Assembly (NCBI GenBank): GCA_030524475.1
Contig: JAUNGO010000006.1
Coordinates: 1-56,243 of the forward strand
Direction: 5' to 3'
Origin: Eggerthellaceae bacterium
Lineage (GTDB): Bacteria; Actinomycetota; Coriobacteriia; Coriobacteriales; Eggerthellaceae
DNA length: 56,243 nucleotides
In this document: positions 24,645 through 54,042 of the stretch, in pieces
How positions within the stretch are numbered: position 1 is the stretch's first letter
Layout: every line of letters starts with the position of its first letter
Translations under genes and position numbers: made by a program
The notes under the pieces: model-generated
Database searches by the model: none
What the model saw: the letters and a program-made list of their open reading frames with translations, nothing else
Told to the model about the DNA's origin: nothing

Positions 24645-25016
24645 GGCGTTGCTCTCATCCTCTAATGTACCATCGATATAGGTTCTGGCCTCATTCGTCG
24701 GTTCATAGTTATAGACTTCATCGTCTGCCCAGAGTGCATCCGGCAAGCCGTTTCGGCTCAATCCCCGAAAGTCCTCCGTTCGGGCAACGCCTTCGTCGAA
24801 AAAGACACCTTTCCCTTCCTGCCTTATGAAGTTGTCTGTTGGTGACTACCGCGCCAATCAACTCATCGGCTTTGTCGCTGATGTATTCATATTTGCATCT
24901 TGCTTCTTTGTCTCTTGATAATGCCTTACTCTTTTGGTTGTAGCATCGAAAACGAAAATCATCACAAAGCTTTGGTCCCAATCGGTCCGCATACCATCAT
25001 TCCAAAGACCGATCAT
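24630..25016 (-). pseudogene. Frameshifted small gene 1 following LlaJI R2
   Basis: An ATG at 25016 overlaps the McrC-like stop as ATGA. The frame reads MIGLWNDGMRTDWDQS...FVMIFVFDATTKRV, then stops early. A protein-like stretch (KYEYISDKADELIGAVVTN) continues in a neighbouring frame, and the original frame resumes with DNFIRQEGKGVFFDEGVART...LPDALWADDEVYNYEPTNEA to a TAA at 24630. Start and end are in the same frame, so two compensating shifts are needed (near 24925 and 24825). The restored product is about 128 residues, not recognised. Position shows it belongs to the restriction operon. Confidence 0.55.
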
Positions 25017-39882: not shown

Positions 39883-39984
39883 CCAGACGCCAACGGCTTC
39901 AGGTTCTTTCGCGCAGACGCGAACACATGATGCGTGCGACGAGCAAGGCGTGCTTGTCGCACGTTCGTTTTCGGGGGAGAGGCT

Positions 39985-42603
39985 ATGATCGAGGCGCTCG
40001 ACATACACGTGCAAGGCATCGTGCAAGGGGTGGGTTTCCGCCCCTTTGTCTATCGCATGGCAAAAAAATACCTGATCAACGGCTGGGTTTTGAACGCAAC
40101 CGACGGCGTGCACATCCACGCCGAGGGCGAGGGGAAGCTGCTCGACGAGTTTGTCTTGGAGTTGTCGGACAACGCGCCCGCTGCGGCCCAAGTCGAGCAA
40201 ATCGAGCTTGCGGAAGTGCCGCTGGAAGGGTTCGACACGTTCGAGATTCGCTTCTCGGACGCGGCGGAGGTCGAGCAGACCACGCTCGTGTCGCCCGACT
40301 TGGCAACGTGCGACGACTGCCTAAGCGAGCTGTTCAACCCCAACGACCGTCGGTTCCGCTACCCCTTCATCAACTGCACGAACTGCGGGCCGCGCTTCAC
40401 CATCATCGAGGGGCTGCCCTACGACCGCGCGAAAACGTCGATGCGCGCGTTTGAGATGTGCCCGCGCTGCGCCGCCGAGTACGCCGACCCGCTCGACCGC
40501 CGATTCCACGCGCAACCCGACGCGTGCTTCGAGTGTGGGCCCGTGGTTTCGTTTGCCCTGGCGGGGCAAACGAAACCGAGATTTATTTACGGGCGTACGC
40601 GGGAGGAGTCGGACGCTATCTTTGCGCGGGCGGTTGAGGTGCTGCGTGCGGGCGGCATTGTGGCGGTGAAGGGGCTCGGCGGGTTTCATTTGGTGTGCGA
40701 CGCGAACAACGCCGAGGCGGTGGCGAAGCTGCGCGCGCGGAAGCGTCGCGAGGGCAAGGCGTTCGCGGTGATGATGGCGAATGCCGACGACGTGCGCGCG
40801 GTGTGCGCGGTGAACGAAGTCGAGGAGGCGGTGCTCTCGGGCGCTCAGCGGCCGATCGTGCTGCTGCGCAAGCGCGCAGGCGTCGAGCTGGCGCCGCAAC
40901 TGGCCGACGGGTTGAGCGAGCTCGGCGTCATGCTGCCGTACACGCCCGTGCAGCATTTGCTAATGCACGACTTCTGCGCTGCCGTTGCCGCCGGCGATGC
41001 GGGCAGCGCGGACAGCGCGGATGGCCAGCGGCGTCGGAAGGGCGACACCGTGCCGCCGATGCTCGTGATGACCTCGGGGAACTTGCACGACGAGCCCATC
41101 GTGACGAGCGATGCGGAGGCCTACGAGAAGCTTGGCGACGTCGCCGACGCGTTTTTGGGGAACAACCGAGAGATTCTCACGCGCTTCGACGACTCGGTGG
41201 TGCGCGTGGTTAGCGCGGGAACCGCCGGCTATGCGGTGCAGTTTATTCGGAGAGCGAGGGGTTATGCGCCGGTTCCGCTTGTCGTTCCGTTCGTTGCTGA
41301 CGCAACGAACGGACAGCTCGACGCTGCGACGCCGCCATGCACCGAACCTTGCGGCTCCAAGTCCTCCTCGCCTACCGAAGTAGGCTTCGTCGGGCTTTCC
41401 CCGCAATCTTCGGCACCTGGTGACGCCTCGCTGACGTTACGAACGACCAGTGACGTTCCTTTCGATTCCGTGTCGCCCGTCATCTTCGCCACGGGGCCTG
41501 AGCAGAAAAACACGTTCACCTTGGCTCGGGAGGGCGAGGCGTTCGTCTCGCAGCATATCGGCGACATGGAGAACGCGGAAACCTACGACGCGTGGCTGGC
41601 CGCGAAGGCGCGCTTCGAGGCGTTGTTCGAGCTTACGCCCACGGCGGTGGCGTGCGACAAGCACCCCGAGTACCTTACCTCCAAATGGGCGCATGACCAG
41701 GCGCTTCCCGTGACCGAGGTACAGCACCACCATGCGCATATTGCATCGGCGATGGCGGAAAACGGGTTGCGCGGCCCTGTGTGCGGCATCGCGTTCGACG
41801 GCACGGGTTTCGGTGAGGACGGTGCCATCTGGGGCGGCGAGGTGCTGTTGGCGAACCTGCAGACGTTCGAGCGCTTCGCCAACTTCGCCTATGTGCCCAT
41901 GCCGGGGGGTGCTGCGGCCGTCAAGAACCCGCTGCGCATGGCGTACGGCGTGCTGTGGGCGTTCGACCTGCTGGAACATCCCGGCGTGCAGGCGGCGCTC
42001 GATGCGCTGGGCGCGCAGGCGGGTATCTGCGACGCGATGATCGAGCAGGGGCTCAACACGCCGATGACGTCGTCGGTCGGGCGCCTGTTCGACGCCGCCA
42101 GCGCCCTGCTCGGCGTGTGCACCAAGCCGAGCTACGAAGGCGAGGGCGCTTGTTTGCTCGAAGCCTTATGTTCCGTCGTTGCTGACGCCCCCGAATCCGA
42201 CGACGCCTCCGCGCGCGAGCGCTACGCCGTTGCCGTCGTGAAAAACGCGGCGAGCGAGACCAGCACGGCGCAGGACACCTCGGTGCTGCTGTTCGACGCC
42301 GCGCCCACGTTCCGCGCCCTGCTCGACGATCTGGCGGCAGACGTGCCCAAACCCGTTATCGCGCGCCGCTTCCACGACGCGATCGTCGGGGCCGTCGTGC
42401 AAACGGCCGAGTTGGTGCGCGCGCTGTACGACATAAACACGGTGGTGCTGTCGGGCGGCGTGTTCATGAACCGCTACGTGATCGAGCACGCGCTGGCGGC
42501 GCTTGAGGCCGCAGGTTTCACGGCGGCTATCAATCGCGACCTGCCGCCCAACGACGGGTGCATCTCTTACGGTCAAGCTGTGGTAGCATGGGCGGCTCGC
42601 TAA
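39985..42603 (+). CDS. hypF: Hydrogenase maturation carbamoyltransferase HypF
   Basis: 872 residues from the ATG after GGGGGAGAGGCT. An acylphosphatase domain (1-90; GIVQGVGFRPFVYR), two zinc-finger-like Cys clusters (about 105-185; CDDC, CTNCG, CPRC, CFECG), a YrdC-like domain (about 195-400; AVKGLGGFHLVCDA) and a Kae1-like C-terminal domain (about 495-872; EVQHHHAHIASAMAENGL) are in order. It makes the CN ligand precursor for [NiFe] hydrogenase from carbamoyl phosphate, with HypE. Two repeat-derived segments lie in frame (40545-40577 and 41272-41455), the second adding about 60 residues between YrdC and Kae1 parts. hypC and hypD lie 11 kb away. Confidence 0.93.
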   Translation: MIEALDIHVQGIVQGVGFRPFVYRMAKKYLINGWVLNATDGVHIHAEGEGKLLDEFVLELSDNAPAAAQVEQIELAEVPLEGFDTFEIRFSDAAEVEQTTLVSPDLATCDDCLSELFNPNDRRFRYPFINCTNCGPRFTIIEGLPYDRAKTSMRAFEMCPRCAAEYADPLDRRFHAQPDACFECGPVVSFALAGQTKPRFIYGRTREESDAIFARAVEVLRAGGIVAVKGLGGFHLVCDANNAEAVAKLRARKRREGKAFAVMMANADDVRAVCAVNEVEEAVLSGAQRPIVLLRKRAGVELAPQLADGLSELGVMLPYTPVQHLLMHDFCAAVAAGDAGSADSADGQRRRKGDTVPPMLVMTSGNLHDEPIVTSDAEAYEKLGDVADAFLGNNREILTRFDDSVVRVVSAGTAGYAVQFIRRARGYAPVPLVVPFVADATNGQLDAATPPCTEPCGSKSSSPTEVGFVGLSPQSSAPGDASLTLRTTSDVPFDSVSPVIFATGPEQKNTFTLAREGEAFVSQHIGDMENAETYDAWLAAKARFEALFELTPTAVACDKHPEYLTSKWAHDQALPVTEVQHHHAHIASAMAENGLRGPVCGIAFDGTGFGEDGAIWGGEVLLANLQTFERFANFAYVPMPGGAAAVKNPLRMAYGVLWAFDLLEHPGVQAALDALGAQAGICDAMIEQGLNTPMTSSVGRLFDAASALLGVCTKPSYEGEGACLLEALCSVVADAPESDDASARERYAVAVVKNAASETSTAQDTSVLLFDAAPTFRALLDDLAADVPKPVIARRFHDAIVGAVVQTAELVRALYDINTVVLSGGVFMNRYVIEHALAALEAAGFTAAINRDLPPNDGCISYGQAVVAWAAR
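40545..40577 (+). repeat. Short dispersed palindrome, copy 3, inside hypF
   Basis: Perfect 14-base arms GGTTTCGTTTGCCC (40545-40558) and GGGCAAACGAAACC (40564-40577). Translated in frame as VSFALAGQTKP in the linker after the second zinc finger. Confidence 0.65.
41272..41455 (+). repeat. MITE-like element, copy 2, in frame in hypF
   Basis: Starts near CCGCTTGTCG, contains a CGTTCGTTGC/GCAACGAACG hairpin and AGCTCGACGCTGCG, and ends CGCTGACGTTACGAACGACC then AGTGACG. These termini match the intergenic copy at 12587-12727. The frame stays open across it. Confidence 0.6.
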
Positions 42604-42786
42604 TAGTCTTCGCGGCAAAGTATGAGGGTGCTCGGCTTTGAAGAAAATATCCGGCAAACACCCTTCCTGTCATCTCAATTGTTGTTTTGCACAACTGCGA
42701 CTCAAGAGCATTGGACTTTTAGTTCCACACTGCCTCTTGTCGCAGCTGCATAATGGGAAGAGGAGATTGAGAAGCAAGGTGATCGA

Positions 42787-43683
42787 ATGGTTTCCTATAC
42801 ACTGCCGGGGATGACGGAATTTTCCGAGTTGAATTTATTGTTTCTATCGTTTTACCGGGACGCTCGCGATATTTTCTTCGATGATGTTGAAATCGAAAGC
42901 GTCTATGGCGGATTTCCTGGAAGCCCGCTTTGCGGCGGTCGCAACAATATTGGCGATCCGGTCTGGCTTTCCGATGTGGAGAAATGTCTTGCAAGGTATC
43001 GTGACTTAGGTACTGCCTGCAACGTCACGTTCACTAACCAATTCGCAACGGCGGATGTTATCGAGTGCGATACATATGGCCAAGGTATATTAGATATGCT
43101 CGATACGGTTTCGCCCGAGCCCAATTTGGCCAATGGGGTGATTTTGTTTTCGGACGCGATGAACGACTTTGTGCGAAGTGCCCATCCGAGGCTTCGCCGG
43201 ATATCGTCGACAACTAAACAGCTGGAGTCTATCGAGGCAACCAATCGAGAAATAAACGCCTTCGATCGCGTCGTCCTCAACTATAACTTTACCCATGACG
43301 AACAAGCTATATCGGCGATAGATCATCGAGAAAAGCTTGAGGTCATGGTGAACGAATACTGCACGCTGGGTTGTCCTTTTCGGTTGGATCATTATCGAGC
43401 AACGAGCGAATGTCAGCTCAAAGGTGTTCCCTGCGACTTCAGGTGCAGGCACAAGCCCGCGCCTCAAGTGTGGGGCTTTCTTAACGGCCTTATTGAGGGT
43501 GACGTGTTTCTAAAAAATGACCAGGTTCGACATTACGCGAACGATCTGGGTGTGGGGAGCTTTAAGATCGTGGGTCGTGGCCTTTCGCGCTATGACGTAA
43601 TCGACTCGTATCTATACTATTTAATAAAGCCTGAACATTGGTATGAAGTTCGCGATTATCTTATCCATAGGGATTATCTATAG
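42787..43683 (+). CDS. Peptidase U32-like/TIM-barrel Cys-motif protein, unknown role
   Basis: 298 residues. Motifs include SVYGGFPGSPLCGGRN, CNVTFTNQ, STTKQLES and the Cys-rich NEYCTLGCPFRLDHYRATS followed by CQLKGVPCDFRC. This pattern (GGR, FTN, STTK, C-x3-CP-x-R-x2-HY) belongs to an uncharacterised family that resembles U32/UbiU-UbiV-type barrels, where the cysteines bind an Fe-S cluster. No radical-SAM CxxxCxxC is present. GC is lower than in hypF next door. Cluster binding and function are inference. Confidence 0.55.
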   Translation: MVSYTLPGMTEFSELNLLFLSFYRDARDIFFDDVEIESVYGGFPGSPLCGGRNNIGDPVWLSDVEKCLARYRDLGTACNVTFTNQFATADVIECDTYGQGILDMLDTVSPEPNLANGVILFSDAMNDFVRSAHPRLRRISSTTKQLESIEATNREINAFDRVVLNYNFTHDEQAISAIDHREKLEVMVNEYCTLGCPFRLDHYRATSECQLKGVPCDFRCRHKPAPQVWGFLNGLIEGDVFLKNDQVRHYANDLGVGSFKIVGRGLSRYDVIDSYLYYLIKPEHWYEVRDYLIHRDYL

Positions 43684-44236
43684 ACGCCTGATGATTTCAC
43701 TGCGTTGTTTCGCGTTATGAAGTGCAGGGCTCGCTTGGCAGAGAAGCGCGTTCTGCGTTTTTTGCTCAATAAAGCGCCCTATTGTTTGTGCAGATGCACA
43801 AACCGGTGTCGTTTGATTCGCGAGAACAACCGTCTGTCGAGGAAAAGCTTTATCGCCTTGACGCGGTTTTAATTAAAAAGCCTTCGCATTTTGTCTGAAA
43901 AATGGCATTTCATCTGCGTAAATAGAACGCCCAAAGAAAAGAAGACAACTTTGGCTGTCTGCGGGCGACTTGTAACTTCGCCTGATCTCATACTGGGTCT
44001 ATCTCGAGGGGGCTTGAGGGGTTGCTGGTGGCGATGTGCCGTTGCTGCAACGAAGGGTGTCGCCACGCAAGTTGGTCGTCAATGACGCTTCTCAGCTCAA
44101 GAGGGAGACTTCCCCTGCGAGTGATAGAAGGTGGGTGTCGTGCGTTCTAGTTGTGCTTTGGCTCGGCGCTGTCTTTTTGTCGCCTTCGAAAGCCCGTCGT
44201 GGATGGTTTCAATCGAAGAAGAGAGAGGAGAAAGGC
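43684..44236. other. 553-base upstream region of the Mo-enzyme cluster
   Basis: No supported gene. It holds the 20-base palindrome at 43784-43803, a TTTTAATTAAAA palindrome near 43867, and AT-rich segments that may contain the promoter. The frame open into the oxidoreductase from 44036 lacks a ribosome site. Confidence 0.4.
43784..43803 (+). promoter_or_regulatory. Perfect inverted repeat, putative operator
   Basis: GTTTGTGCA and TGCACAAAC separated by GA, in the region before the molybdenum oxidoreductase operon. Could bind the PucR-type regulator of the cluster or another dimer. Confidence 0.45.
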
Positions 44237-46633
44237 ATGGAACGAAAGAATCTCGAAGAGCTCTATCACAAGGGCGAACTCGAGTGGGAAGAGGGCGAAT
44301 ACACGGTTTGCCGTGGATTCCAATGGACCCCTCCTGGATGCCACAACAGTTGCGGCATCCTGTACTACCTGAAAGATGGCGTGATGGATCATGCCGAAGG
44401 CGATCCGCTGTTCCCCTACAACAACGGTCGCTTGTGCGCACGCTGCCTGAACCTGCACGAGGCTGGCTACCAAGAAAACCGCCTGAAGTACCCGCTGCTT
44501 CGCAAGAAAGAAGACCGCGGCAACATCGACGCCTTCAAGCGCATCAGCTGGGATGAAGCGCTCGACTACATCGCCAACTACGTGAAGAACGAAATTGACG
44601 GCAAAGGTTACGGCCGCGAGTCGATCTTCGGCATGGTGGGTACGGGCCGCAACATCTGCTGGCAGGTTCCGTGGATTATCAACAATGCGTTCGGTTCTCC
44701 GAATACTTTCTGCGCATTGTTCTCCGGCGACTCGTGCGCCGTCCCGCGTACGGCTGCAACTGTGGCGCTTATGGGCGGTTATCCGGTTTCCGACTTTGGC
44801 CAGTTCAACGAGCAAATGATGGATTACCCCGACTTCACTGTTCCGGGAACCATTCTTATTTGGGGCGCCAATCCGCTGCGCTCTAATGCCGACTGCTTCC
44901 AGGGCTTCTGGATCACCGACGCCATGAAGCGCGGTTCTCAACTTGTGGTGATCGATCCGATGATCAACTGGATGTCGGCAAAGGCGGCTGTGCAAATTCA
45001 GATTCGTCCTGGCACCGATGCGGCAGTTGCGATGGCTATGAATCATGTCGTCATGGAGGAAGACCTATACGACCACGACTTTGTTGACAAATGGTGCTAC
45101 GGTTTTGACGAGTGGCGTGAGCGTTGTGCGGAGTGGACGCCTGAAAAGGCTGCCGAAGTTGCCTGGTGCGAAGCCGACGACATTCGTGCTGCTGCTCGCT
45201 TTATCGCCACAAACGGCGCATGTGCTGCTCCTTTTGGGGTTTCAAACGACCAAAAGCGCAACGGGGTTGCTGCTTATCAGTCTATTTTCAACATGCTTGC
45301 CATCACCGGCAACTACGAAAACCCTGGCGGCAATACCATTGCTTATGACCCGTGGGGCACGGTCATGTCCTATATTGCAGGTTGGGATGAGGGCGTGCTC
45401 ACTCCCGAGATGAAGGCGAAGCGCTTGGGTGACAAGGAGTTCCCGCTGCATTCCGTGGGGTTCTCCGCGCTTGGTCAACCCGACATTCTCTTGAAGGCGC
45501 TCGAAACCAACAACCCCCCGATGCGCATGAGCTTTTGCATGGGCACGAATCCTTTCGTGAACATGGCTCCCGATGCGTCGCGCGCCTACCATGCGCTCAT
45601 GAATGTCGATTTCGCCGTTGCATGCGACTACCGCATGACGCCCTATATTGCCGGTTGCGTCGACTTGGTTCTTCCTATTGCCATGAATTGGGAGCGCAAT
45701 ACGCTTCGTTGCTGGTTTACTCCTATGCGCGCCAACCGCAAAATCTCGACGTATTACGAGGCTAAGTCTGACGAGGAGATCGTGGTGCTCTTGGGCAACA
45801 AGATGAATCCCGAGTTCTTCCAGTCGAAGGGTATCAGTACCGACATGGACATGCTTGAGTACATTGTGCAGCAGGCCCCGAACCACACATGGAGCTTCCA
45901 AGATCTCTACGATGGCAAGGCCGACGGCAAAAACTACGATTGGCCTGATCGTCCATACTATCAGTATAAGACGGGTGGTTTGCGCCCCGACGGCCAGCCT
46001 GGTTTTGCCACCGCGACAGGTCGCATTGAGCTGTGGTGCACCATGTTCGCCAACCTTGGCCTCGAACCTATGCCCAAGTACGAGGAGCCGGCGGAAAGCC
46101 CTGTTTCTACGCCTGAGTTGTTCGAGAAGTATCCGCTCGTCCTTACCACTGGGGCGCGAAACTTCGAGTTCTTCCACTCCGAGCAGCGCGAGCAGGCGCA
46201 TATGCGCGCGACATATCCCGATCCGCGCGTTCGAATCAACCCCGAAGACGCTAAGGAATTGGGTGTTTCCGACAACGAATGGGTATGGATTGAAGGCGTG
46301 CGTGGTCGTTGCCGCCAACGTGCTCTCGTCACCGAGGGAATTATGAAAGGCGTCGTTGAGGCCGACCACGGTTGGTGGTTCCCCGAACAAGACGGAAACG
46401 CTCCCCATTTGTTTGGCGCGTTCGATTCGAACATCAACAACCTCACGGAGAACTGCAATCCTGGGCCTTATAGCTTCGGTGCTGATTTCCGCAGCACGCT
46501 GTGCAAGATTTATCCCTGCACGCCAGAGAACAGCGAAGTTATGCCTGGCGTCGAAGTCGTGATCAATGGCGGCTTCACGAAAACCCCCGTGTATGGGAAC
46601 CCGGCAGTCGCCGCATACGGTGAGCAACAGTAA
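44237..46633 (+). CDS. Molybdopterin oxidoreductase, catechol dehydroxylase/transhydroxylase-like (1)
   Basis: 798 residues from the ATG after GAGGAGAAAGGC. DMSO-reductase superfamily: Fe-S segment with Cys35, Cys39 and Cys67 (PGCHNSCG; GRLCARC), then FSGDSCAVPRTA at 162-173 near the Mo site, and a C-terminal domain with NINNLTENCNPGPYSFGADF. No Tat signal, so cytoplasmic. The start WTPPGCHNSCGILYYLKDG and the partner arrangement resemble pyrogallol transhydroxylase large subunits and gut catechol dehydroxylases. A 4Fe-4S partner follows after 15 bases, then an MFS carrier. Substrate unknown; aromatic reduction is inference. Confidence 0.85.
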   Translation: MERKNLEELYHKGELEWEEGEYTVCRGFQWTPPGCHNSCGILYYLKDGVMDHAEGDPLFPYNNGRLCARCLNLHEAGYQENRLKYPLLRKKEDRGNIDAFKRISWDEALDYIANYVKNEIDGKGYGRESIFGMVGTGRNICWQVPWIINNAFGSPNTFCALFSGDSCAVPRTAATVALMGGYPVSDFGQFNEQMMDYPDFTVPGTILIWGANPLRSNADCFQGFWITDAMKRGSQLVVIDPMINWMSAKAAVQIQIRPGTDAAVAMAMNHVVMEEDLYDHDFVDKWCYGFDEWRERCAEWTPEKAAEVAWCEADDIRAAARFIATNGACAAPFGVSNDQKRNGVAAYQSIFNMLAITGNYENPGGNTIAYDPWGTVMSYIAGWDEGVLTPEMKAKRLGDKEFPLHSVGFSALGQPDILLKALETNNPPMRMSFCMGTNPFVNMAPDASRAYHALMNVDFAVACDYRMTPYIAGCVDLVLPIAMNWERNTLRCWFTPMRANRKISTYYEAKSDEEIVVLLGNKMNPEFFQSKGISTDMDMLEYIVQQAPNHTWSFQDLYDGKADGKNYDWPDRPYYQYKTGGLRPDGQPGFATATGRIELWCTMFANLGLEPMPKYEEPAESPVSTPELFEKYPLVLTTGARNFEFFHSEQREQAHMRATYPDPRVRINPEDAKELGVSDNEWVWIEGVRGRCRQRALVTEGIMKGVVEADHGWWFPEQDGNAPHLFGAFDSNINNLTENCNPGPYSFGADFRSTLCKIYPCTPENSEVMPGVEVVINGGFTKTPVYGNPAVAAYGEQQ

Positions 46634-46648
46634 GAGAGGGGGACAGAA

Positions 46649-46984
46649 ATGAGCAAAATGGGTCTTTTTATCAACTATGACATCTGTTTCGGATGCCACG
46701 CCTGTGAGATGGCGTGTTCTCAAGAGAAAAAGCTCCCTGCGGGTGAGTTTGGCATCAAGATTGCCCAATATGGTCCGCATAAGAACATCAACGGTGACTG
46801 GGAATACACCTACCTTCCTATTCCAACCAAACTCTGCGATCTGTGCGCCGAGCGCACGGATATCGGCAAACTTCCCAGTTGCGTGCATCATTGCGAGGCT
46901 GCATGCATGGAGTATGGCGACATGGAGGAGCTTTCTAAACGGCTTGTCGAGCAACCGCGCTCCGTTGTTTTTTCGCTTGACTAA
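46649..46984 (+). CDS. Small 4Fe-4S electron-transfer protein (1)
   Basis: 111 residues. MGLFINYDICFGCHACEMAC gives a CxxCxxCxxxC cluster; CDLCAE...CVHHCEAACMEYG gives a second set. It resembles a cut-down DmsB/HybA-type subunit (normally about 200 residues with four clusters). GAGAGGGGG precedes the ATG. It probably passes electrons to the oxidoreductase upstream; the small size matches partners found in gut catechol dehydroxylase operons. Confidence 0.85.
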   Translation: MSKMGLFINYDICFGCHACEMACSQEKKLPAGEFGIKIAQYGPHKNINGDWEYTYLPIPTKLCDLCAERTDIGKLPSCVHHCEAACMEYGDMEELSKRLVEQPRSVVFSLD

Positions 46985-47007
46985 TCGGTTCGGCCATATT
47001 GCGTTTT

Positions 47008-47030
47008 GCCAGCACCTTTCGGGTGCCGGC
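47008..47030 (+). terminator. Hairpin between 4Fe-4S gene and MFS gene
   Basis: GCCAGCACC (47008-47016) and GGGTGCCGGC (47021-47030), 4-base loop, no T-run; possible attenuator or RNA-stability element within the operon. Confidence 0.45.
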
Positions 47031-47118
47031 AAGCAGGGGGGTTGACAGCATCACACGGTGTCGCTTCGCCGATGCGCGTGGGGCTGTATCGACGAGGTGC
47101 AACAACGAAAGGGGAAAA

Positions 47119-48375
47119 ATGAATTACAAAATTATCGACGGCGAAAAAGTGTACGGCTATCGCTGGGTTATCTTGGCGCTCATGGGCCTTGCCTGTATCG
47201 TCGTGAACGGATCTACTCTTGTGTTTGCTGGTATGGCGGGTATTCTTTTGAATCCTGTGGGGCAATGGGCCTTCGATGCCCAACAGTTCATGATGCTTAC
47301 GAGTTGTTCGTATTTGACGGGCTTTTTGTTCTGTATGGTGACCGGCACGATGGCCGACCGTATGGGTATCAAAAAGGTGCTCATTGTCGGTTTGGCGATT
47401 TCTGCAGTCGGTGCTATTTTGCGCATCTTCTGGGGCGGATTCGCTGGCATGTTTGCGACATCGGTTATTTTCGGTTTCGGCCTGGCGGCTCTGAACGCGA
47501 ACTCTGCTAAGATCATCAGCCTATGGTTTCCTGGCAAGATGGTTAGCGTTGCCATGGGAGTTTACCTGTGTTGCGCCACTGTCGGTTGTGCCCTCGCCGT
47601 GCCCCTGGCCGGCATGGCAGCCGAGCCGACCCCTGTTTTCATTGCGGTCGCTGTTCTTTCTGTAGCCGTCGTTGTGTTGTGGGCGGTACTCTATAAGAAG
47701 CATCCCGACAACGAACAGCGCATTGTCGAGCCCGTTATGAAGCATCTCGGCGTTGTCGTGAAATCGAAGAACTTGTGGGTTGCCTGCCTCGTCATCGGCT
47801 TCGTCATGGCTGCCGGTGCGGTCAACAACGGTTATCTCGTTGCTGCTCTTTCGGGTGATCCCGCAGTTGGTGGCAAGGCGCTTGACTACACTTTCGCAAC
47901 GCTTACGTCTTCTGTGTGCAACATTACCTGCTCGGTCGGTGGCATCATGTTCCCGCTCATTTTCTCGAAGACTCATAACGAGAAATGGTGGCTCGTCGGG
48001 CTGTGCGCTGCCGTCATCGTTGGCATCGGCATCTACTGGTTCATGCTCGACGGCGTCGCTACCGCCGTGGGCGTCATGATCGTGTCCGTGCTCGTCGGCG
48101 GCGTGCTTCCGTTGGCGAAGGCTCTTCCCGCTCAGCTTCCCGACATCAGCCGCGAGCACATGGGCGCTGCGGGTGGTCTGCACTCCACTATTCAGAACGC
48201 GTTCGCGTTTCTCATTCCGTCTTATGTGGTGGCACCGATCTGCGGTCTGAACTACGACCTGCTTAATGGCGCGGCATATGCAATTCTGACGGCGCTTGTT
48301 CTTGTGTCTGCGATATTCCTTCCAAAGCTCGTTACGGGAAATCGCGCGCCTGTAGCTGAAGAATCTGAAAAGTAA
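47119..48375 (+). CDS. MFS transporter
   Basis: 418 residues from the ATG after GAAAGGGGAAAA; the longer frame to 46999 is not supported. Twelve hydrophobic helices, with GTMADRMGIKKVL between helices 2 and 3 as the MFS signature loop and a charged C-terminus. Its place between two Mo-oxidoreductase gene pairs suggests uptake or export of the aromatic substrate or product. Oxalate/formate-type MFS proteins have a similar plan. Confidence 0.88.
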   Translation: MNYKIIDGEKVYGYRWVILALMGLACIVVNGSTLVFAGMAGILLNPVGQWAFDAQQFMMLTSCSYLTGFLFCMVTGTMADRMGIKKVLIVGLAISAVGAILRIFWGGFAGMFATSVIFGFGLAALNANSAKIISLWFPGKMVSVAMGVYLCCATVGCALAVPLAGMAAEPTPVFIAVAVLSVAVVVLWAVLYKKHPDNEQRIVEPVMKHLGVVVKSKNLWVACLVIGFVMAAGAVNNGYLVAALSGDPAVGGKALDYTFATLTSSVCNITCSVGGIMFPLIFSKTHNEKWWLVGLCAAVIVGIGIYWFMLDGVATAVGVMIVSVLVGGVLPLAKALPAQLPDISREHMGAAGGLHSTIQNAFAFLIPSYVVAPICGLNYDLLNGAAYAILTALVLVSAIFLPKLVTGNRAPVAEESEK

Positions 48376-48385
48376 GACACCGTTT

Positions 48386-48426
48386 GCCTCTCCCCAATGC
48401 GTACCCCCTGTGTGTTGGGGAGAGGC
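48386..48426 (+). terminator. Hairpin after MFS gene
   Basis: Perfect 12-base arms GCCTCTCCCCAA (48386-48397) and TTGGGGAGAGGC (48415-48426), 17-base loop; no T-run, so termination strength uncertain. Confidence 0.5.
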
Positions 48427-48486
48427 CTGATTCCTCGCGGGTGGGGCTTCGGAGTGGAAGTCCCACCCTGCTGTGCAGGAGGCTTC

Positions 48487-48801
48487 ATGTGTTGGGCGTG
48501 CAACCCTGTATGCGGAAGATGCAAGCCGCCGAAGCAGAAAGTTGCGACATGCTCGTCATGCGGCGCGGTCTCGTTCTTCTCGCGTGAGGCGGTACTTTCG
48601 AAAAATGATCTCGTGTGTTCTCGATGCGGCTGCAATCTGACAGAGCAGCTCGTGGCGACTCCTGTTTTATGCAAGCGCAGCGGGGTATGGTGCGCTTGGC
48701 CTTGCGGGCAAAGCGACAAAATGCCGGAGTCAGGCTATGCGGATTGCCCGTACAACACGCCGATTCCGCGGCAAGAGGCGGTCGGCGAGTCGAAGTGGTG
48801 A
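48487..48801 (+). CDS. Cys-rich zinc-ribbon-like small protein
   Basis: 104 residues from the ATG behind CAGGAGGCTTC. Cysteines occur in MCWACNPVCGRCKPP, CSSCGAVSFF, CSRCGCNL, and later C-x6-C and C-x3-C pairs, about 14 in total, suggesting two zinc or Fe-S sites. No membrane or signal segment. It sits between the MFS gene and the second oxidoreductase on the same strand and may be an insertion or maturation chaperone or a redox/sensor protein. No family recognised with certainty. Confidence 0.6.
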   Translation: MCWACNPVCGRCKPPKQKVATCSSCGAVSFFSREAVLSKNDLVCSRCGCNLTEQLVATPVLCKRSGVWCAWPCGQSDKMPESGYADCPYNTPIPRQEAVGESKW

Positions 48802-48830
48802 GAGAGAAGAGGAAAGAAGAGGAGATGACG

Positions 48831-51224
48831 ATGAAGAAATACAGCGAAGAACTCTATCGAACGGATCGCCACTGGAAAGAGGGAGGCTTCGATGTGTACC
48901 GCTCAACTCATTGGTCGGCACCGGGTTGTCACAACGGGTGTGGTCTGGTGTACTACGTGAAAAACGGCAAGCTCGATCATGTCGAGGGCGATCCGAACGC
49001 CGCTTTCAATCAAGGTCGCTTATGCATTCGATGCTTGAATCAACTTGAGGCGATTTACAGTGAGGACAGGATCGTTCATCCCATGCGACGCGATCCCGAA
49101 AGGCGCGGCGACGACGACGCGTGGGAGCAGTGCAGTTGGGACGAGGCGTACGACCTCATCGAGGAGAATGTACGCCGCATTCAGCAAGAATACGGTTCTG
49201 AATCCATTGTTGGCCTTGTCGGCACTGGACGTGACGTGAACTGCCAATTGGCGTTGACCTGCTACGTTGCGTTTAAGACGCCCAATCTGGCGTGCGGGTT
49301 TTTGACGGGAGACTCGTGCATGCTTCCTCGTATGGCGGGAACGATGATCACGCACGGCGACTGCCCTGTTGCCGATATGTCGCAGTTTTCTGAACTACGC
49401 TACGACGACCCTCGATACGAATGGCCAGAAGTGTGTTTGATTTGGGGCAATAATCCGATTGTCTCCAACGGCGACGGCTTTTTTGGACACTGGATCGTCG
49501 ACGCAATGAGGCGAGGTGGTACGAAGCTCGTTGTCGTCGACCCTGAGGTCACGTGGCTCGCGGCGCACGCCGAGGTTCTTTTGCAGGTTCGCCCCGCAAC
49601 TGATGCGGCGCTCGCTATGTCGATGATTAACGTGGTCATTGAAGAGGACCTGTATGATCATGACTTTGTCGAGAGGTGGACATACGGGTTCGATGAACTT
49701 TCCGAACGCGTGAGAGACTGGACACCCGAGCGTGCTGCGGAGATATGCGGCATCGATGCGGAGGGCATCCGACGTGCAGCTCGTCTTTTTGGCTCCGCGC
49801 GGCCTGCGGCACTGCAATGGGGCTTGGCAACCGATGCTCATGCGAACGGCGTTCACGAGGTGCATGCTATCATGGCGCTTTCGGCGTTGACGGGAAATCT
49901 CGAGGTACCTGGCGGGATGCGCATGGCGCGTTTGCCCTGGGATATGGAGCTTTCCTATTCATGTGGGTGGAAATGGCTTGATCCGGAGCTTCAGGCGAAG
50001 AGGCTCGGCAACACCATGTCTCCTATGCACCAGTTTGGCGTCACCGCTTGTGCCCAGGCGGATTGCATGCTCAATGCCATCGAGACGGGCGATCCGTACC
50101 CTATCAAGATGCTCTATCTTGAAGGAACGAACCCAATTGCGAATATGGGCGCCGAAGCACCGCGTGTGTACGAAGCGATGATGAAGATGGATTTCAACGT
50201 GGTGCTTGATTATGTGCTGACGCCAACGGCGAGTGCTGCCTGCGATCTGTTCCTGCCGATCGCAATGGCTGCCGAGCGGACTTCCATTCGCGAATGGTGG
50301 GCTCCAACTCGTGCGTGCATGCCCGTTGTCGATCCGCAAGGCGAAGCGCGATCGGACAATCAAATCACCATCGATTTGATAAATCGACTGAATCCCGAGC
50401 TTGCGCATGAGGTGTTTCACGACATCACCACTGAGGCCGAGCTTTGCCAGTGGCAGATAACCTACAATGCGCACAATGCGCCGGAAGGCCAAACTTTCGC
50501 CGACCAAGTCGAAAAGGTTGCAACATGGCCGCAAGTTGAATATTTCCGCCATGAGAAAGGGTTGTTGAGGACGGATGGCAAGCCAGGATTTAATACGGCG
50601 ACGGGTCGGATAGAACTTTACTCGCCAGCGTTTGCTTCGTTCGGCTTAGATCCTCTGCCGAAGTACGAAGAACCCTGGGAAAGCCCAATCAGTAGCCCCG
50701 AGAAGTTCGAGGAGTATCCGGTCATTATCACGACGGGGCATCGTTCTTGGGAGTTCTTCCACTCCGAGGGGCGTAACCAGGAGACGATGCGCGAACTTCA
50801 TCCGGATCCCTTGTTCGATGTGAACCCCGAAACCGCCGAGTTGTATGGCATTGGGGAGGGAGATTGGTGCTGGATCGAGAACGGTCGGGGTCGTTGTCGT
50901 CAACGCGCTCATCTGACGCCTCAGATGGAGCCGGGTGTCATTAATGCTGAGCATGGTTGGTGGTTCCCGGAGACTGAGGCGAACGCTCCGAATTTGTTTG
51001 GCGTATTCGACTCGAACATCAACAATCTTACCACTCAAATGGCATACGGCGAGACGGGCTATGGCGCGCCATACAAGGGCTTCTTGTGCAAGATATATCG
51101 CTGCACGCCCGAAAACAGCACGCCGACCCCAACCGAGGTGATAGCAAATGGAGGCTGGGATTACGAACGTATCACTATGTCCAACCACGACAAAATAGTC
51201 CGTTCATCTGAGAGGGCGTGCTAG
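48831..51224 (+). CDS. Molybdopterin oxidoreductase, catechol dehydroxylase/transhydroxylase-like (2)
   Basis: 797 residues from the ATG at 48831, where GGAG lies 6 bases upstream; another ATG six bases earlier is in frame. Paralogous to the oxidoreductase at 44237 along its length: PGCHNGCGLVYYVKNG with Cys33, Cys37 and GRLC Cys65, LTGDSCMLPRMA near the Mo site, and FDSNINNLTTQMAYGETGYG near the end. No Tat signal. Its own 4Fe-4S partner follows after 8 bases. The two enzymes differ enough to suggest different substrates or steps. Confidence 0.85.
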   Translation: MKKYSEELYRTDRHWKEGGFDVYRSTHWSAPGCHNGCGLVYYVKNGKLDHVEGDPNAAFNQGRLCIRCLNQLEAIYSEDRIVHPMRRDPERRGDDDAWEQCSWDEAYDLIEENVRRIQQEYGSESIVGLVGTGRDVNCQLALTCYVAFKTPNLACGFLTGDSCMLPRMAGTMITHGDCPVADMSQFSELRYDDPRYEWPEVCLIWGNNPIVSNGDGFFGHWIVDAMRRGGTKLVVVDPEVTWLAAHAEVLLQVRPATDAALAMSMINVVIEEDLYDHDFVERWTYGFDELSERVRDWTPERAAEICGIDAEGIRRAARLFGSARPAALQWGLATDAHANGVHEVHAIMALSALTGNLEVPGGMRMARLPWDMELSYSCGWKWLDPELQAKRLGNTMSPMHQFGVTACAQADCMLNAIETGDPYPIKMLYLEGTNPIANMGAEAPRVYEAMMKMDFNVVLDYVLTPTASAACDLFLPIAMAAERTSIREWWAPTRACMPVVDPQGEARSDNQITIDLINRLNPELAHEVFHDITTEAELCQWQITYNAHNAPEGQTFADQVEKVATWPQVEYFRHEKGLLRTDGKPGFNTATGRIELYSPAFASFGLDPLPKYEEPWESPISSPEKFEEYPVIITTGHRSWEFFHSEGRNQETMRELHPDPLFDVNPETAELYGIGEGDWCWIENGRGRCRQRAHLTPQMEPGVINAEHGWWFPETEANAPNLFGVFDSNINNLTTQMAYGETGYGAPYKGFLCKIYRCTPENSTPTPTEVIANGGWDYERITMSNHDKIVRSSERAC

Positions 51225-51232
51225 GGGGCATC

Positions 51233-51571
51233 ATGACATACGGTCTTTTCATTGATTATGGGTATTGCACGGGATGCCACACCTGTGAGGTTGCGTGCAA
51301 GAAGGAGCATCACCTGAAAAAGGGGCAGTGGGGTATTCACGTTCTGCAAGATGGCCCCCGGCAAAAGGAGGACGGCTCTTGGGAGTTTACCTACATTCCG
51401 CTGCCAACAAGCCTCTGCGACCTTTGCGGGGAGCGTGTCGGCGTGGGTCGGCTTCCGATGTGTGTTCATCACTGCCAAGCGGGGGTAATGGAGTTCGGGG
51501 AACTTGAGGAGTTGGTGAAGCTTCAGAGTCGCACACCGAACTCGGTTGTGTTTCGTCCTGCTGTTGGATAG
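51233..51571 (+). CDS. Small 4Fe-4S electron-transfer protein (2)
   Basis: 112 residues from the ATG after CTAGGGGGCATC. YGYCTGCHTCEVACKKEHHL gives the first Cys set; CDLCGE...MCVHHCQAGVMEFG gives the second, which has one Cys fewer than in the first ferredoxin (QAG for EAAC). It pairs with the oxidoreductase just upstream. The missing Cys suggests a changed or 3Fe-4S second cluster. Confidence 0.85.
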   Translation: MTYGLFIDYGYCTGCHTCEVACKKEHHLKKGQWGIHVLQDGPRQKEDGSWEFTYIPLPTSLCDLCGERVGVGRLPMCVHHCQAGVMEFGELEELVKLQSRTPNSVVFRPAVG

Positions 51572-51611
51572 GTGCGTGAATCTGCTCTCACAATCGTAGC
51601 GAAGATCTCGG

Positions 51612-51644
51612 CAAAGGGCTTTGCTCGCAGGAGCAGGCCCTTTT
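51612..51644 (+). terminator. Terminator of second oxidoreductase operon
   Basis: AAAGGGC...TTGCTC, GCAG loop, GAGCA...GCCCTTTT; lies between convergent genes and can serve both. Confidence 0.75.
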
Positions 51645-51666
51645 CTGTTCCTGTCGAAGCAAAGAC

Positions 51667-53334
51667 TTAGACAAGCAGCTGGCGAAACTTGTTTGAGGTG
51701 AGTATTTTGTATCGGTAGTAGCTGATCAGGCGCTCTCTCACGCTAAATTGCTCCAAATTGATGCCGAACTTCTTTTCAATGCTGTTAATGCGATAGAGCA
51801 CGTTATTGCGATGCATATGAAGTTGTTGAGCTGTGGGCGTGGTTTTTCGTTCATTGAACAGGTAGTAATACAGCAGTTTTATATCACTTGTGCTATGTCC
51901 TGGCTCGGCTGCGGCGATGTCGTCCAGTATGGTATGACTCATGCAAAACGACCATAAATCGGAGTCTTGATCACGGGCGTCGAGGCAGTAATACGCGAAA
52001 GCGTCGCTGAAGTGGATGACGCGTCGGCTGTCAATGTTGTCGAGCGGGCGCAGCTCGATATCGATACATGATTTGTAAGTGCGAGCGATGCGGGCTTGCG
52101 CGAGCGCAAAACGAAGGTCGCGCAACCGCTCGAATGCGTCAGATGTGTATCCCATGCATTTCATCTCGCGACAGAAAGCGTTGAGCTTGTCGAAATCTTC
52201 CTTACGTCGGCTGACGTGTTTATCTTTGTAGAAACTGAGCACAAGCAAGGAGTCTTCATAGGAAAAGACAAAGCGATCGGGATAGGCTTTTTGCAGCATG
52301 GACGCGATCCATGACGGCTGCTCGACATATTCGCCGACTCGGTAGTCGATCATCTCGAGGCTAAACCATCCTCTTGTCTCGAGATTGAGCAGAGCTGACT
52401 GCTCGTCGAGATAGGCCTGGGTGAGTCGCGCGTCATCGATGACTTTTCTGAGGAAGAGCGCAGTGGGGGATTCGTTGAAAAGGGCGCTGCTCACGACTTG
52501 TTGACAAGCGCTCGAAAGAATTTTGAACAGATCGAGCGTTCCGGGCGTTACGTCGTGGTTGCTGCAAACCATAACGACATGGCCTGCATAAGAGTTGCCG
52601 CTTCTCAGCACGCTTGTGACATATTGGTATGGGGCAATGGAATCCGGCCCAAACACATGCACCTCTTTTTGGTCACGCCATTCTTCGATTGCTCCGATCG
52701 AGTCGGCTGTTTTAATGGTGTCGATGTCGTGGTAGCCGAGGCGCACGAGTTCCGTTGAAAGGGGGTCGACAGGTTCAATGTTTTTGGTACATGCGACGAG
52801 GCTATATGTCGAGTCGTTCACGTCGATGAAGTTGTCGAATATGAACTCGCTTGCGTCGATGATCTCTTGGACGGTTCCTTTCCTCGCAACGATACGTGCA
52901 AGGTCGTCGGCCCATTTTCGTGTCGTGAAAATGCGCAGGTAAATTGCCGACATGGCGATCGCTTGCAGCTTCGCTCTATCACCTGGTATTTTGCTTCGAA
53001 CAATGACGAGCTTGCGAGCAAGGTCGGGCGCAAAAGGCGGGGCATCGACAGAGAAGGGTTCGTCTTGTTGCAGAACAATTAGACCCATGGCGTGTGGATG
53101 TTGCATGAAGAGCACATCTACGTCAGTCAGCCCGACGACGTAAAGAGTTACGCGATCGTCGTAGGTGGAGAATTGCTTCCCGGACGAAGGGGGCGCAGTG
53201 CACCATGAGATCGTGCGACTCGGATTGTCGGGTAGTGAAACGATTTCAAAATCATCGAGCTTGTCGAGAACTACGTTAACGGTTGTTGCTCCAGCAAAGC
53301 CTCGTGAAGAAGGCGTTTGGACGTCGGTATTCAT
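51667..53334 (-). CDS. PucR/CdaR-type transcriptional regulator
   Basis: 555 residues from the ATG after GGGGGGCTT (an in-frame TTG lies six codons upstream). The C-terminal YYLFNERKTTPTAQQLHMHR followed by NNVLYRINSIEKKFGINL is the PucR HTH_30 motif. The N-terminal two-thirds hold a PucR-like N-domain and a GGDEF-like central part (FSYEDSLLVLSF). PucR/CdaR proteins respond to small catabolites. Convergent with the Mo-enzyme cluster, it is the obvious candidate regulator for it. Confidence 0.85.
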   Translation of the reverse strand: MNTDVQTPSSRGFAGATTVNVVLDKLDDFEIVSLPDNPSRTISWCTAPPSSGKQFSTYDDRVTLYVVGLTDVDVLFMQHPHAMGLIVLQQDEPFSVDAPPFAPDLARKLVIVRSKIPGDRAKLQAIAMSAIYLRIFTTRKWADDLARIVARKGTVQEIIDASEFIFDNFIDVNDSTYSLVACTKNIEPVDPLSTELVRLGYHDIDTIKTADSIGAIEEWRDQKEVHVFGPDSIAPYQYVTSVLRSGNSYAGHVVMVCSNHDVTPGTLDLFKILSSACQQVVSSALFNESPTALFLRKVIDDARLTQAYLDEQSALLNLETRGWFSLEMIDYRVGEYVEQPSWIASMLQKAYPDRFVFSYEDSLLVLSFYKDKHVSRRKEDFDKLNAFCREMKCMGYTSDAFERLRDLRFALAQARIARTYKSCIDIELRPLDNIDSRRVIHFSDAFAYYCLDARDQDSDLWSFCMSHTILDDIAAAEPGHSTSDIKLLYYYLFNERKTTPTAQQLHMHRNNVLYRINSIEKKFGINLEQFSVRERLISYYRYKILTSNKFRQLLV

Positions 53335-53722
53335 AAGCCCCCCGTATCGCAATGATATTTACCATGCTAGCAGGAAAAACTGGAAAAGAGTTGAAGCGAT
53401 TGCAAAAAATATTGCGTCCTTCAATACCAATCAACACCGATGCCGATGGCTTGGTCTGTATCTGTGCGTTGTCGGAGGAGATGCGAGTTTTCGTATGGCG
53501 CAAATAAGAAGTTGGCGTGATGGTGTGTGACGGTTTTGGCCGAAGGCTGCACGGGTGCTTATGATACGGGTATTTGGTGGGCCTATTGCTCAAAGTCGTT
53601 GGCATGCTCTGCGAGGTAGATCGCCAATTGTAGGTAGTTGCCGATATGTTGCTGACTTGTCGTGGCGAACCTGCGAAAATGGCATTAGGCAAAACGGGGG
53701 TAATTGAAAGAAGGTATGACGT
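53335..53722. other. Divergent intergenic region, pucR-type gene and hypC
   Basis: 388 bases, no supported gene. It contains GCGATTGCAAAAAATATTGC near 53395, a loose inverted repeat, and AT-rich stretches near each start. GAAAGAAGG precedes hypC. Confidence 0.35.
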
Positions 53723-53998
53723 ATGTGTTTGGCGATTCCCGCGAAAATCGTTGAAATCGAAGGCGACGGGTTGGCGACGGTCGACATCTTGGGCGTGACG
53801 CGCTCGATCTCGGTCGACCTCACGCCGAGCGCGCAGGTGGGCAGCTACGTGCTGGTGCATGCCGGCTTCGCCATCGAAGTGGTTGACGAGCAGTACGCGC
53901 AGGAAACCATCGAGCTCATCAAGCAGTTCCCCGACCTTGTCGGCGAGGACCTGGGCATCGGCCCCGAGGAGCTTGCCACGGCCGGTGCAAGCGCGTAG
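53723..53998 (+). CDS. hypC: Hydrogenase maturation chaperone HypC
   Basis: 91 residues, family length. The N-terminal MCLAIPAKIVEIEG with Cys2 is the HypC signature; the OB-like fold continues through VGSYVLVHAGFAIEVVDEQ. With HypD it assembles the Fe(CN)2CO unit and delivers it to the hydrogenase large subunit. GAAAGAAGG precedes the ATG. hypD follows after 44 bases. Confidence 0.95.
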   Translation: MCLAIPAKIVEIEGDGLATVDILGVTRSISVDLTPSAQVGSYVLVHAGFAIEVVDEQYAQETIELIKQFPDLVGEDLGIGPEELATAGASA

Positions 53999-54042
53999 CG
54001 GCTCCAGCTGCTTCAATGAGACGACAACCTGCGAGGGGTTTC

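What the first reader, a model, noticed from the sequence alone, without database searches (positions are those of the whole stretch)
43684..53352. Twin cytoplasmic Mo-oxidoreductase cluster resembling catechol dehydroxylases
Seen: two full-length paralogous bis-MGD enzymes without Tat signals, each followed within 15 bases by a 111-112-residue 4Fe-4S protein, with one MFS transporter and a Cys-rich protein between them and a convergent PucR-type regulator. Known: Eggerthellaceae catechol dehydroxylases and pyrogallol transhydroxylase belong to this superfamily, and some dehydroxylase loci pair the enzyme with a small ferredoxin-like protein and an MFS carrier. Inference: this is a two-enzyme module for reductive use of a plant- or host-derived aromatic, perhaps acting in sequence or on related substrates. 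The substrate is undescribed as far as I can judge.
Basis: partly seen in the sequence, partly recalled or inferred. Interest (0 to 1): 0.72.

Follow-up and report, generated by a model that had tools for sequence, protein, structure and literature searches.

The report
Inserted twin catechol-dehydroxylase-type gene cassette
A bacterium related to the gut species Ellagibacter isourolithinifaciens carries an 11-kilobase inserted block of genes with two molybdenum enzymes of the catechol-dehydroxylase type, each beside a small iron-sulfur protein, which are predicted to strip hydroxyl groups from a still unknown aromatic compound, likely one from plants or the host.

Summary
CdhA1 (798 aa) and CdhA2 (797 aa) share 48% identity, lack a Tat signal, and are each followed within 15 bp by a 111-112 aa 4Fe-4S protein; an MFS transporter and a Cys-rich protein lie between, and a PucR regulator is convergent. 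They match soluble, Gordonibacter-type catechol dehydroxylases (nearest solved structure acetylene hydratase, not pyrogallol transhydroxylase), but no characterised enzyme that I could place is an orthologue: eam-like enzymes stand elsewhere in the same genome at 38-43% identity, and hits in five genomes taken as Gordonibacter reach 54%.

New: (1) genes 42787-53352 fill an 11,110-bp insertion between hypF and hypC, uninterrupted in four relatives; the same set stands elsewhere in E. isourolithinifaciens DSM 104140. (2) PucR lies at 10 of 12 loci of this enzyme clade against 2 of 45 other loci; published loci mostly use LuxR. (3) The Cys-rich protein belongs to a zinc-ribbon-like family with a soluble dehydroxylase within 7 kb at 35 of 40 sites. 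(4) A palindrome upstream of CdhA1 has one exact match per genome in two genomes, but not in a third. Substrate and order of action are untested. New variant of a known kind.

The parts
42595..53704 (.). 11,110-bp insertion (by alignment ends) between hypF and hypC that holds the whole cassette
   Evidence: 43-45 bp separate the hypF-side and hypC-side alignments in the two same-genus genomes G030 and G031; hypF-hypC-hypD are also contiguous in G057 and G115; HypF, HypC and HypD confirmed by Pfam
42686..42694 (+). TTTGCACAA, half of the palindrome, 92 bp before the U32-fold gene; its only occurrence in the window; same place in Ellagibacter
42787..43683 (+). U32-fold protein, 298 aa, of unknown role; orthologue near CdhA1 in all 3 of 138 family genomes that have CdhA1
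43738..43756 (+). terminator-like stem-loop after the U32-fold gene
   Evidence: consensus scan only; 17 such sites in the region against 12.0 (sd 4.0) in shuffles
43786..43801 (.). palindrome TTGTGCA-N2-TGCACAA, candidate regulator site
   Evidence: one exact match in all of G000 and one in all of G001, both upstream of cdhA1 in otherwise diverged DNA; no exact match in G115
44237..46633 (+). CdhA1, bis-MGD catalytic subunit, 798 aa, metal-ligand Cys167 by alignment
46649..46984 (+). FeS1 (CdhB1), 111 aa, two predicted 4Fe-4S motifs (C13/16/19/23 and C63/66/78/82)
47119..48375 (+). MFS transporter, 418 aa, predicted carrier of substrate or product
   Evidence: PF07690
48487..48801 (+). Cys-rich, zinc-ribbon-like protein, 104 aa (MCWACNPVCGRCKPPK...)
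48831..51224 (+). CdhA2, bis-MGD catalytic subunit, 797 aa, metal-ligand Cys163 by alignment
51233..51571 (+). FeS2 (CdhB2), 112 aa
51620..51637 (+). terminator-like stem-loop after FeS2
   Evidence: consensus scan only
51667..53352 (-). PucR-type regulator with HTH_30 domain, convergent
   Evidence: PF13556, E 9e-10

Best explanation
This is an 11.1-kb inserted gene cassette that encodes two soluble, Gordonibacter-type molybdenum enzymes of the catechol-dehydroxylase kind, each with a small 4Fe-4S partner, which are predicted to remove ring hydroxyls from an imported aromatic, likely under control of the cassette's PucR-type regulator. Proposed working (inferred): the MFS protein brings a catechol or pyrogallol into the cell; PucR senses it and acts at the palindrome at 43786-43801, switching on cdhA1-B1-MFS-Cys-cdhA2-B2 as one transcript; FeS1 and FeS2 pass electrons to the bis-MGD centre of CdhA1 and CdhA2, each of which reduces off one catecholic hydroxyl, probably at two positions of one compound or at two steps of one path, with the compound serving as electron acceptor. 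The zinc-ribbon-like protein is probably an assembly or maturation aid for the enzymes, and the U32-fold protein an accessory of CdhA1. Shown: gene content, families, purifying selection, insertion, clade, conserved neighbours, palindrome. Inferred: substrate class, operon, sensing, order of reactions, and the roles of the Cys-rich and U32-fold proteins.
For: Pfam domains and missing Tat motif. Nearest solved structure acetylene hydratase for both, the relation reported for catechol dehydroxylases (PMC7028382, passages). Architecture equals the published Gordonibacter type: no Tat, smaller, small 4Fe-4S protein, adjacent MFS. The Cys aligned with the metal ligand of acetylene hydratase is invariant in 110 of 110 aligned rows (the window's two included); the Asp13 position is His in 109 of 110 (one gap). 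One 20-row clade, support 100/99 in the careful tree. Two published precedents for paired soluble dehydroxylases on one compound. The same A-B-MFS-A-B plus convergent PucR layout recurs in G030 with diverged enzymes. HTH_30 confirmed at eight further dehydroxylase loci of the clade.
Against: No substrate, expression or activity data. One genome (G115/SIG38) has CdhA1, MFS, U32-fold and PucR but no CdhA2 within its 22-kb locus, so the pair is not obligatory; the same genome has no exact palindrome, and its one-mismatch site is on another contig, so the palindrome is not general even among CdhA1 loci. No sigma-70-like promoter was found on the + strand before cdhA1, and two terminator-like sites (43852, 44153) lie between palindrome and cdhA1, though such sites are near chance level. 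A CdhA1+CdhA2 clade is neither supported nor rejected (p-AU 0.12). PucR is not confined to this clade: 2 of 45 other loci have it, and one search places PucR near further enzymes. Gut bacteria also do 21-dehydroxylation of steroids (search listing; that a related molybdoenzyme does it is recalled), so an aromatic substrate is likely, not certain. The palindrome was noticed in the alignment before its count.
Confidence: 0.66

Rival explanations
1. The two enzymes act on two unrelated catechols and are merely stored side by side, as in the Eggerthella clusters where each dehydroxylase has its own regulator and substrate.
For: CdhA1 and CdhA2 are only 48% identical, far under the 72% used for isofunctional clusters; CdhA1 occurs without CdhA2 in G115; E. 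lenta clusters hold enzymes with separate substrates.
Against: There is one regulator and one MFS, and on the + strand no terminator-like site between FeS1 and CdhA2 except two inside the MFS gene (consensus only); the published pair Eadh1/Eadh2 works in sequence although the two eam-like enzymes that G000 and Ellagibacter share, named here by synteny, are also only 43% identical.
Confidence: 0.3
2. The enzymes reduce or dehydroxylate a non-aromatic substrate, for example a steroid side chain, and only resemble catechol dehydroxylases.
For: 21-dehydroxylation by gut bacteria including Gordonibacter is discussed in papers seen in a search listing; all sequence evidence here is about kinship, not substrate.
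Against: The soluble enzymes whose chemistry I read about (Eadh1-3, (+)-Eldh1/2, Gp Hcdh) act on catechols, and for the Eadh enzymes the removed hydroxyl had to belong to a catechol.
Confidence: 0.12
3. The cassette is a diverged copy of the ellagic acid (eam) pathway.
For: Two soluble dehydroxylases with MFS, in another genus of the family of the known isourolithin A producer.
Against: No Amidohydro_2 (Eah-like) hit in the window and no LuxR found in the cassette; an eam-like cluster with Amidohydro_2 protein, LuxR and two dehydroxylases is on G000 contig 17, and Ellagibacter has a three-enzyme version on contig 1; identity of the cassette's enzymes to those is 38-43%.
Confidence: 0.03
4. Acetylene hydratase or pyrogallol transhydroxylase activity rather than reductive dehydroxylation.
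For: Acetylene hydratase is the closest solved structure.
Against: Its catalytic Asp13 (number and role recalled) is His in both enzymes; the iron-sulfur partner speaks for electron transfer; transhydroxylase is a marginal hit (E 4e-5 and 5e-8).
Confidence: 0.03

Closest known systems
Gordonibacter-type catechol dehydroxylases (Dodh, Cldh/(-)-Eddh, Gp Hcdh, (+)-Eldh1/2, Eadh1-3)
   Same: Soluble bis-MGD subunit without Tat, small 4Fe-4S partner gene, adjacent MFS, colocalised enzyme pairs
   Different: Identity to eam-like enzymes (named here by synteny) 38-43%, to the pair inferred to be (+)-Eldh1/2 44-52%; PucR instead of LuxR; Cys-rich and U32-fold neighbours are not mentioned in the passages I read
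eam gene cluster (Eah, Eadh1, Eadh2, Eadh3) of Gordonibacter and Ellagibacter
   Same: Two or three soluble dehydroxylases with MFS carriers in one cluster
   Different: No Eah-like protein, no LuxR; an eam-like cluster is elsewhere in the same genome
Eggerthella-type catechol dehydroxylases (Dadh, Hcdh, Cadh)
   Same: Same superfamily and proposed chemistry
   Different: Those have Tat, a membrane anchor and a larger catalytic subunit
Acetylene hydratase (2e7z)
   Same: Closest solved structure; metal-ligand Cys conserved
   Different: Asp13 replaced by His; the Fe-S motif is C-x3-C...C-x2-C, without a Cys three residues before the first of these; dedicated 4Fe-4S partner
Pyrogallol transhydroxylase AthL (4v4c)
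   Same: bis-MGD enzyme of aromatic rings
   Different: Only a marginal sequence match

Membership tests
Gordonibacter-type catechol dehydroxylase | bis-MGD catalytic subunit closer to acetylene hydratase than to other DMSO-reductase members | tested here: met
   2e7z is the best of the solved-structure matches for both enzymes
Gordonibacter-type catechol dehydroxylase | no Tat signal, smaller catalytic subunit | tested here: met
   798 and 797 aa, no RR in first 45 residues
Gordonibacter-type catechol dehydroxylase | adjacent gene for a small 4Fe-4S protein | tested here: met
   FeS1 and FeS2 at 15 and 8 bp
Gordonibacter-type catechol dehydroxylase | adjacent MFS transporter (usual) | tested here: met
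   47119-48375
Gordonibacter-type catechol dehydroxylase | groups with characterised soluble enzymes in a tree | tested here: inconclusive
   Both join one clade of soluble enzymes near the inferred (+)-Eldh1/2, but the deep forks to eam-like enzymes and to the four longer outgroup rows are open or long-branched; Dodh and Gp Hcdh could not be identified
Gordonibacter-type catechol dehydroxylase | membrane LuxR regulator nearby (common, not defining) | tested here: not met
   PucR instead; LuxR at 0 of 12 clade loci
Gordonibacter-type catechol dehydroxylase | reductive removal of a catecholic hydroxyl, induced by the substrate | not testable with these tools
   needs culture or enzyme assay
eam ellagic-acid cluster | Eah decarboxylase in the cluster and orthologous Eadh | tested here: not met
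   The one Amidohydro_2 hit of G000 lies on contig 17, not in the window; 38-43% identity
Acetylene hydratase | catalytic Asp13 (recalled) | tested here: not met
   His in both by alignment
Pyrogallol transhydroxylase | AthL as nearest relative | tested here: not met
   4v4c E 4e-5 and 5e-8 against 1e-69 and 2e-74 for 2e7z
U32 family (gene 42787-43683) | U32 fold | tested here: met
   5d88 best by Foldseek and VIA; Pfam U32 reaches at best E 0.0063, in 6 of 35 aligned homologues, and does not match the window protein

The most novel reading that the evidence does not exclude
A PucR-governed, mobile twin-dehydroxylase cassette: a further subtype of soluble catechol dehydroxylase loci that carries its own zinc-ribbon assembly factor and a U32-type metal-binding helper, and takes two hydroxyls off one pyrogallol or bis-catechol compound; the MCW-motif protein family would be a general, so far undescribed maturation factor of gut catechol dehydroxylases.
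Probability: 0.3. Interest if true: 0.72.

Novelty: new variant of a known kind. Interest (0 to 1): 0.52.

Why it matters
Of the 126 gut catechol-dehydroxylase clusters in PMC11585353 (2024), 121 had no known function then. This cassette gives a compact, testable pair: a copy with enzymes 93-97% identical sits in a named type strain, E. isourolithinifaciens DSM 104140. The PucR regulator and the palindrome offer a route to the substrate by reporter screening, as was suggested for LuxR loci. The Cys-rich family, found beside soluble dehydroxylases across Eggerthellaceae, is a candidate missing factor for making such enzymes in other hosts; Dadh and its kin have been hard to express.

Tried and rejected
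Rejected: selenocysteine or broken dehydroxylases in Gordonibacter-like genomes (in-frame stops flagged). Where I read the hits (L157-L162 and L203), the only stops were at the C-terminal end of the match.

Rejected: eam membership. Rejected: AthL kinship.

Corrected: I first counted PucR at 0 of 45 loci outside the clade (motif and tblastn). A whole-genome family search showed this was a detection failure, and a profile gave 2 of 45, L140 and L168 (HTH_30 confirmed). The Fisher p rests on the wrong count and is not used. The LuxR profile had three seeds, so 20 of 45 is a lower bound.
Full report
What is there. Both large subunits have the three bis-MGD domains over Pfam's cut-offs and no twin arginine in the first 45 residues. 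They are 48% identical, and the FeS proteins 55%. FeS1 carries two four-Cys sets, consistent with two 4Fe-4S clusters.

Whose genome. The one scan of named genomes returned two loci for CdhA1 (records of the window's own genome may be left out): Ellagibacter isourolithinifaciens DSM 104140 (97%) and the MAG SIG38 (78%). The Ellagibacter copy is syntenic: CdhA2 93%, MFS 95%, PucR 72%, U32-fold 81%, Cys-rich 66%. SIG38 has CdhA1, FeS1, MFS (64%), U32-fold (52%) and PucR (34%), but no CdhA2 in its 22-kb locus. Of 138 genomes of the family searched, 3 have a CdhA1 hit above 60% and 2 a CdhA2 hit above 60%; the next CdhA2 relatives are at 58-59%. In both searches at most the seven best candidates per genome were scored. 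dN/dS against Ellagibacter is 0.003-0.09 for the enzymes, FeS proteins, MFS and PucR and 0.27 for the Cys-rich gene; synonymous sites of the U32-fold gene are saturated.

An inserted cassette. hypF and hypC-hypD (Pfam) flank the block. In G030 and G031 (same genus) 43-45 bp separate the hypF-side and hypC-side alignments, and hypF-hypC-hypD are also contiguous in Ellagibacter (G057) and SIG38 (G115), where the cassette lies on other contigs. The window therefore carries an insertion of about 11,110 bp, 42595-53704 by alignment ends. G030 and G031 have no U32-fold, CdhA1 or CdhA2 orthologue above 60%. I found no shared repeat of 9 bp or more at the ends, and no recombinase among the genes named above, so how it moved is unknown.

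What the enzymes are. The closest solved structure for both is acetylene hydratase, E 1e-69 and 2e-74; the paper that defined the class reports the same relation, and describes the Gordonibacter enzymes as smaller, without Tat, beside a small 4Fe-4S gene and an MFS gene (PMC7028382, passages). In an alignment of 110 rows, the window's two included (four longer, distant bis-MGD rows of the same genome were set aside as outgroup; their Tat signals were not tested), the Cys at the metal position (167 in CdhA1, 163 in CdhA2) is present in 110 of 110. The acetylene hydratase Asp13 position is His in 109 of 110, the remaining row being a gap (number and role of Asp13 and of the metal-ligand Cys are recalled). 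The Fe-S ligands read C-x3-C...C-x2-C.

Placement. In a quick tree of 114 rows both enzymes fall in one 20-row clade (SH-aLRT 98) inside a 25-row clade (99). A careful tree of 33 chosen rows gives the 20-row clade 100/99, the next fork out 94/97. CdhA1 and CdhA2 as sisters are not rejected (p-AU 0.12). I could name two characterised sets, both by inference. The eam-like enzymes, identified by a neighbouring Amidohydro_2 protein and, in G000, a Pfam-confirmed LuxR, are 38-43% identical to the cassette's enzymes. The pair P0066/P0046, whose copies stand side by side in g26 genomes, is 74.1% identical and one member is named Gordonibacter pamelaeae; the paper gives 74% for the colocalised (+)-Eldh1/(+)-Eldh2 (PMC11887054, sections 9 and 10), so I infer that they are these. 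The five genomes of that genus (G066-G070, taken as Gordonibacter through P0066) have no CdhA2 hit over 54% and no CdhA1 hit at E 1e-240. The published isofunctional cut is 72% (PMC11585353, section 6 part 1 of 2), so neither enzyme has an orthologue in those five genomes. Deep forks in the trees are open and long-branched, so I do not claim the rooted order.

Regulator. Published dehydroxylase loci mostly use membrane LuxR regulators; dadh has a LysR gene as well (PMC9734109 passages; PMC12771579 section 5). I compared 12 loci of the 25-row clade, the window included (one, L238, is not in the tree: its enzyme is cut by the contig end and it was assigned by its 53% match to CdhA2 and the close kinship of its PucR to that of L143), with 45 other loci that carry a soluble enzyme. 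PucR lies within 8 kb of the enzyme gene at 10 of 12 and LuxR at 0 of 12; L162 and L165 have neither, and L165 is cut by a contig end. At the 45 others PucR is at 2 (L140, L168), LuxR at 20 and neither at 23. The loci are related and not independent. The 12 genomes searched with PF13556 hold 4-13 matches each, some near further dehydroxylases that I did not fetch (for example on both sides of the G067 enzyme at C1:269206-271533), so PucR is enriched in this clade, not private to it. HTH_30 was confirmed by Pfam in 8 of 8 further clade proteins tested and at L140 and L168. A search for PucR with catechol dehydroxylase found 0 papers in the open-access library. Any two of PucR, Gordonibacter, Eggerthella lenta and Ellagibacter gave 223 papers; none of the 10 listed held PucR. 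This is not proof that nothing is in print.

Candidate operator. TTGTGCA-N2-TGCACAA at 43786-43801 has one exact match in the whole of G000 and one in the whole of G001, both upstream of cdhA1 in intergenic DNA that otherwise aligns poorly. G000 has one further site with one mismatch, on contig 82. The half-site TTTGCACAA occurs once in the window (42686) and once on that strand of L031, each time about 90 bp before the U32-fold gene. Against it: the motif was seen first and counted afterwards; SIG38, which has cdhA1 and PucR, has no exact match; and it is absent from the cdhA2 upstream and from the six other PucR loci scanned. Terminator-like sites lie after the U32-fold gene and after FeS2; on the + strand those between FeS1 and cdhA2 are two inside the MFS gene, and two lie between palindrome and cdhA1; the scan as a whole is near chance (17 against 12.0, sd 4.0), and it shows no + strand promoter before cdhA1. 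One transcript cdhA1 to FeS2 is therefore plausible, not shown.

Cys-rich family. Homologues begin MCWACNPxCGRCKPPK; 12 Cys are invariant in the 15 aligned rows. 38 of 138 family genomes have a match, 68 rows in all by my count. I fetched 40 sites, nearly all of the better-scoring ones not already in hand: 35 have a soluble dehydroxylase in the fetched stretch, all within 7 kb, 32 within 5 kb and 15 within 2 kb. The misses are L222, L223, L230, L236 and L239; four of them (all but L223) lie within 4 kb of a contig end. Ten more sites were in hand because of the enzyme and are not counted; the remaining low-scoring or split rows were not examined. As a rough control, of 24 sites of the distant U32 paralogues listed I fetched 11; none has a match of soluble-dehydroxylase strength within about 10 kb, though six show weaker bis-MGD matches. 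In SIG38 the same N-terminal motif is fused to the U32-fold protein (P0161). Function is unknown; assembly or maturation is my inference.

U32-fold protein. Its model is confident (pLDDT 92.6), and U32 peptidase MK0906 is the clear best match. Three Cys are invariant in the 35 aligned sequences. Homologues of 46% and more are more numerous in the protein search than CdhA1 homologues of 60% and more, so it probably also occurs apart from CdhA1. That some U32 relatives are Fe-S hydroxylation proteins (UbiU/UbiV) is recalled, not from a call.

How it likely works, and limits. See Best explanation. [quoted passage not shown] Eadh1/Eadh2 and (+)-Eldh1/2 are precedents for paired soluble enzymes on one compound (PMC12771579 sections 5 and 6; PMC11887054 section 9). 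Nothing here shows the substrate, the expression, or the order of the two reactions.

Noticed in passing
window 25013-30235: LlaJI-like restriction endonuclease, an AAA/MTaX1 protein and two C5-cytosine methylases in a stretch of 0.45-0.50 GC, against 0.57 and 0.63 on either side.
   Followed up: no
L031 1141-2314 (minus): Remnant of a third dehydroxylase catalytic gene, several parts missing, beside an intact-looking FeS gene, about 6 kb upstream of the cassette in Ellagibacter.
   Followed up: partly
L218, L219, L227, L229, L235 and L047, L221, L224, L226: Nine of 110 aligned soluble dehydroxylase rows have lost all four Fe-S cluster Cys, as two patterns (EWSF and SYNN), while keeping the metal-ligand Cys.
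   Followed up: partly
L160 (G030 C5): Same layout enzyme-FeS-MFS-enzyme-FeS with convergent PucR in the same genus, but with different, diverged enzymes.
   Followed up: partly
L032 14248-15222 (P0161): MCWLCNPLCGKC motif of the Cys-rich family fused to the N-terminus of the U32-fold protein.
   Followed up: no
window 39979-42603 and 53723-55137: The insertion splits a hydrogenase-maturation set (hypF | hypC-hypD); a comment seen in a search listing links H2 to 21-dehydroxylation, so a functional tie is possible but untested.
   Followed up: no
G000 whole genome: About ten soluble dehydroxylase-like enzymes among 56 match rows (some are halves of one gene) to CdhA1 in 2.3 Mb.
   Followed up: no
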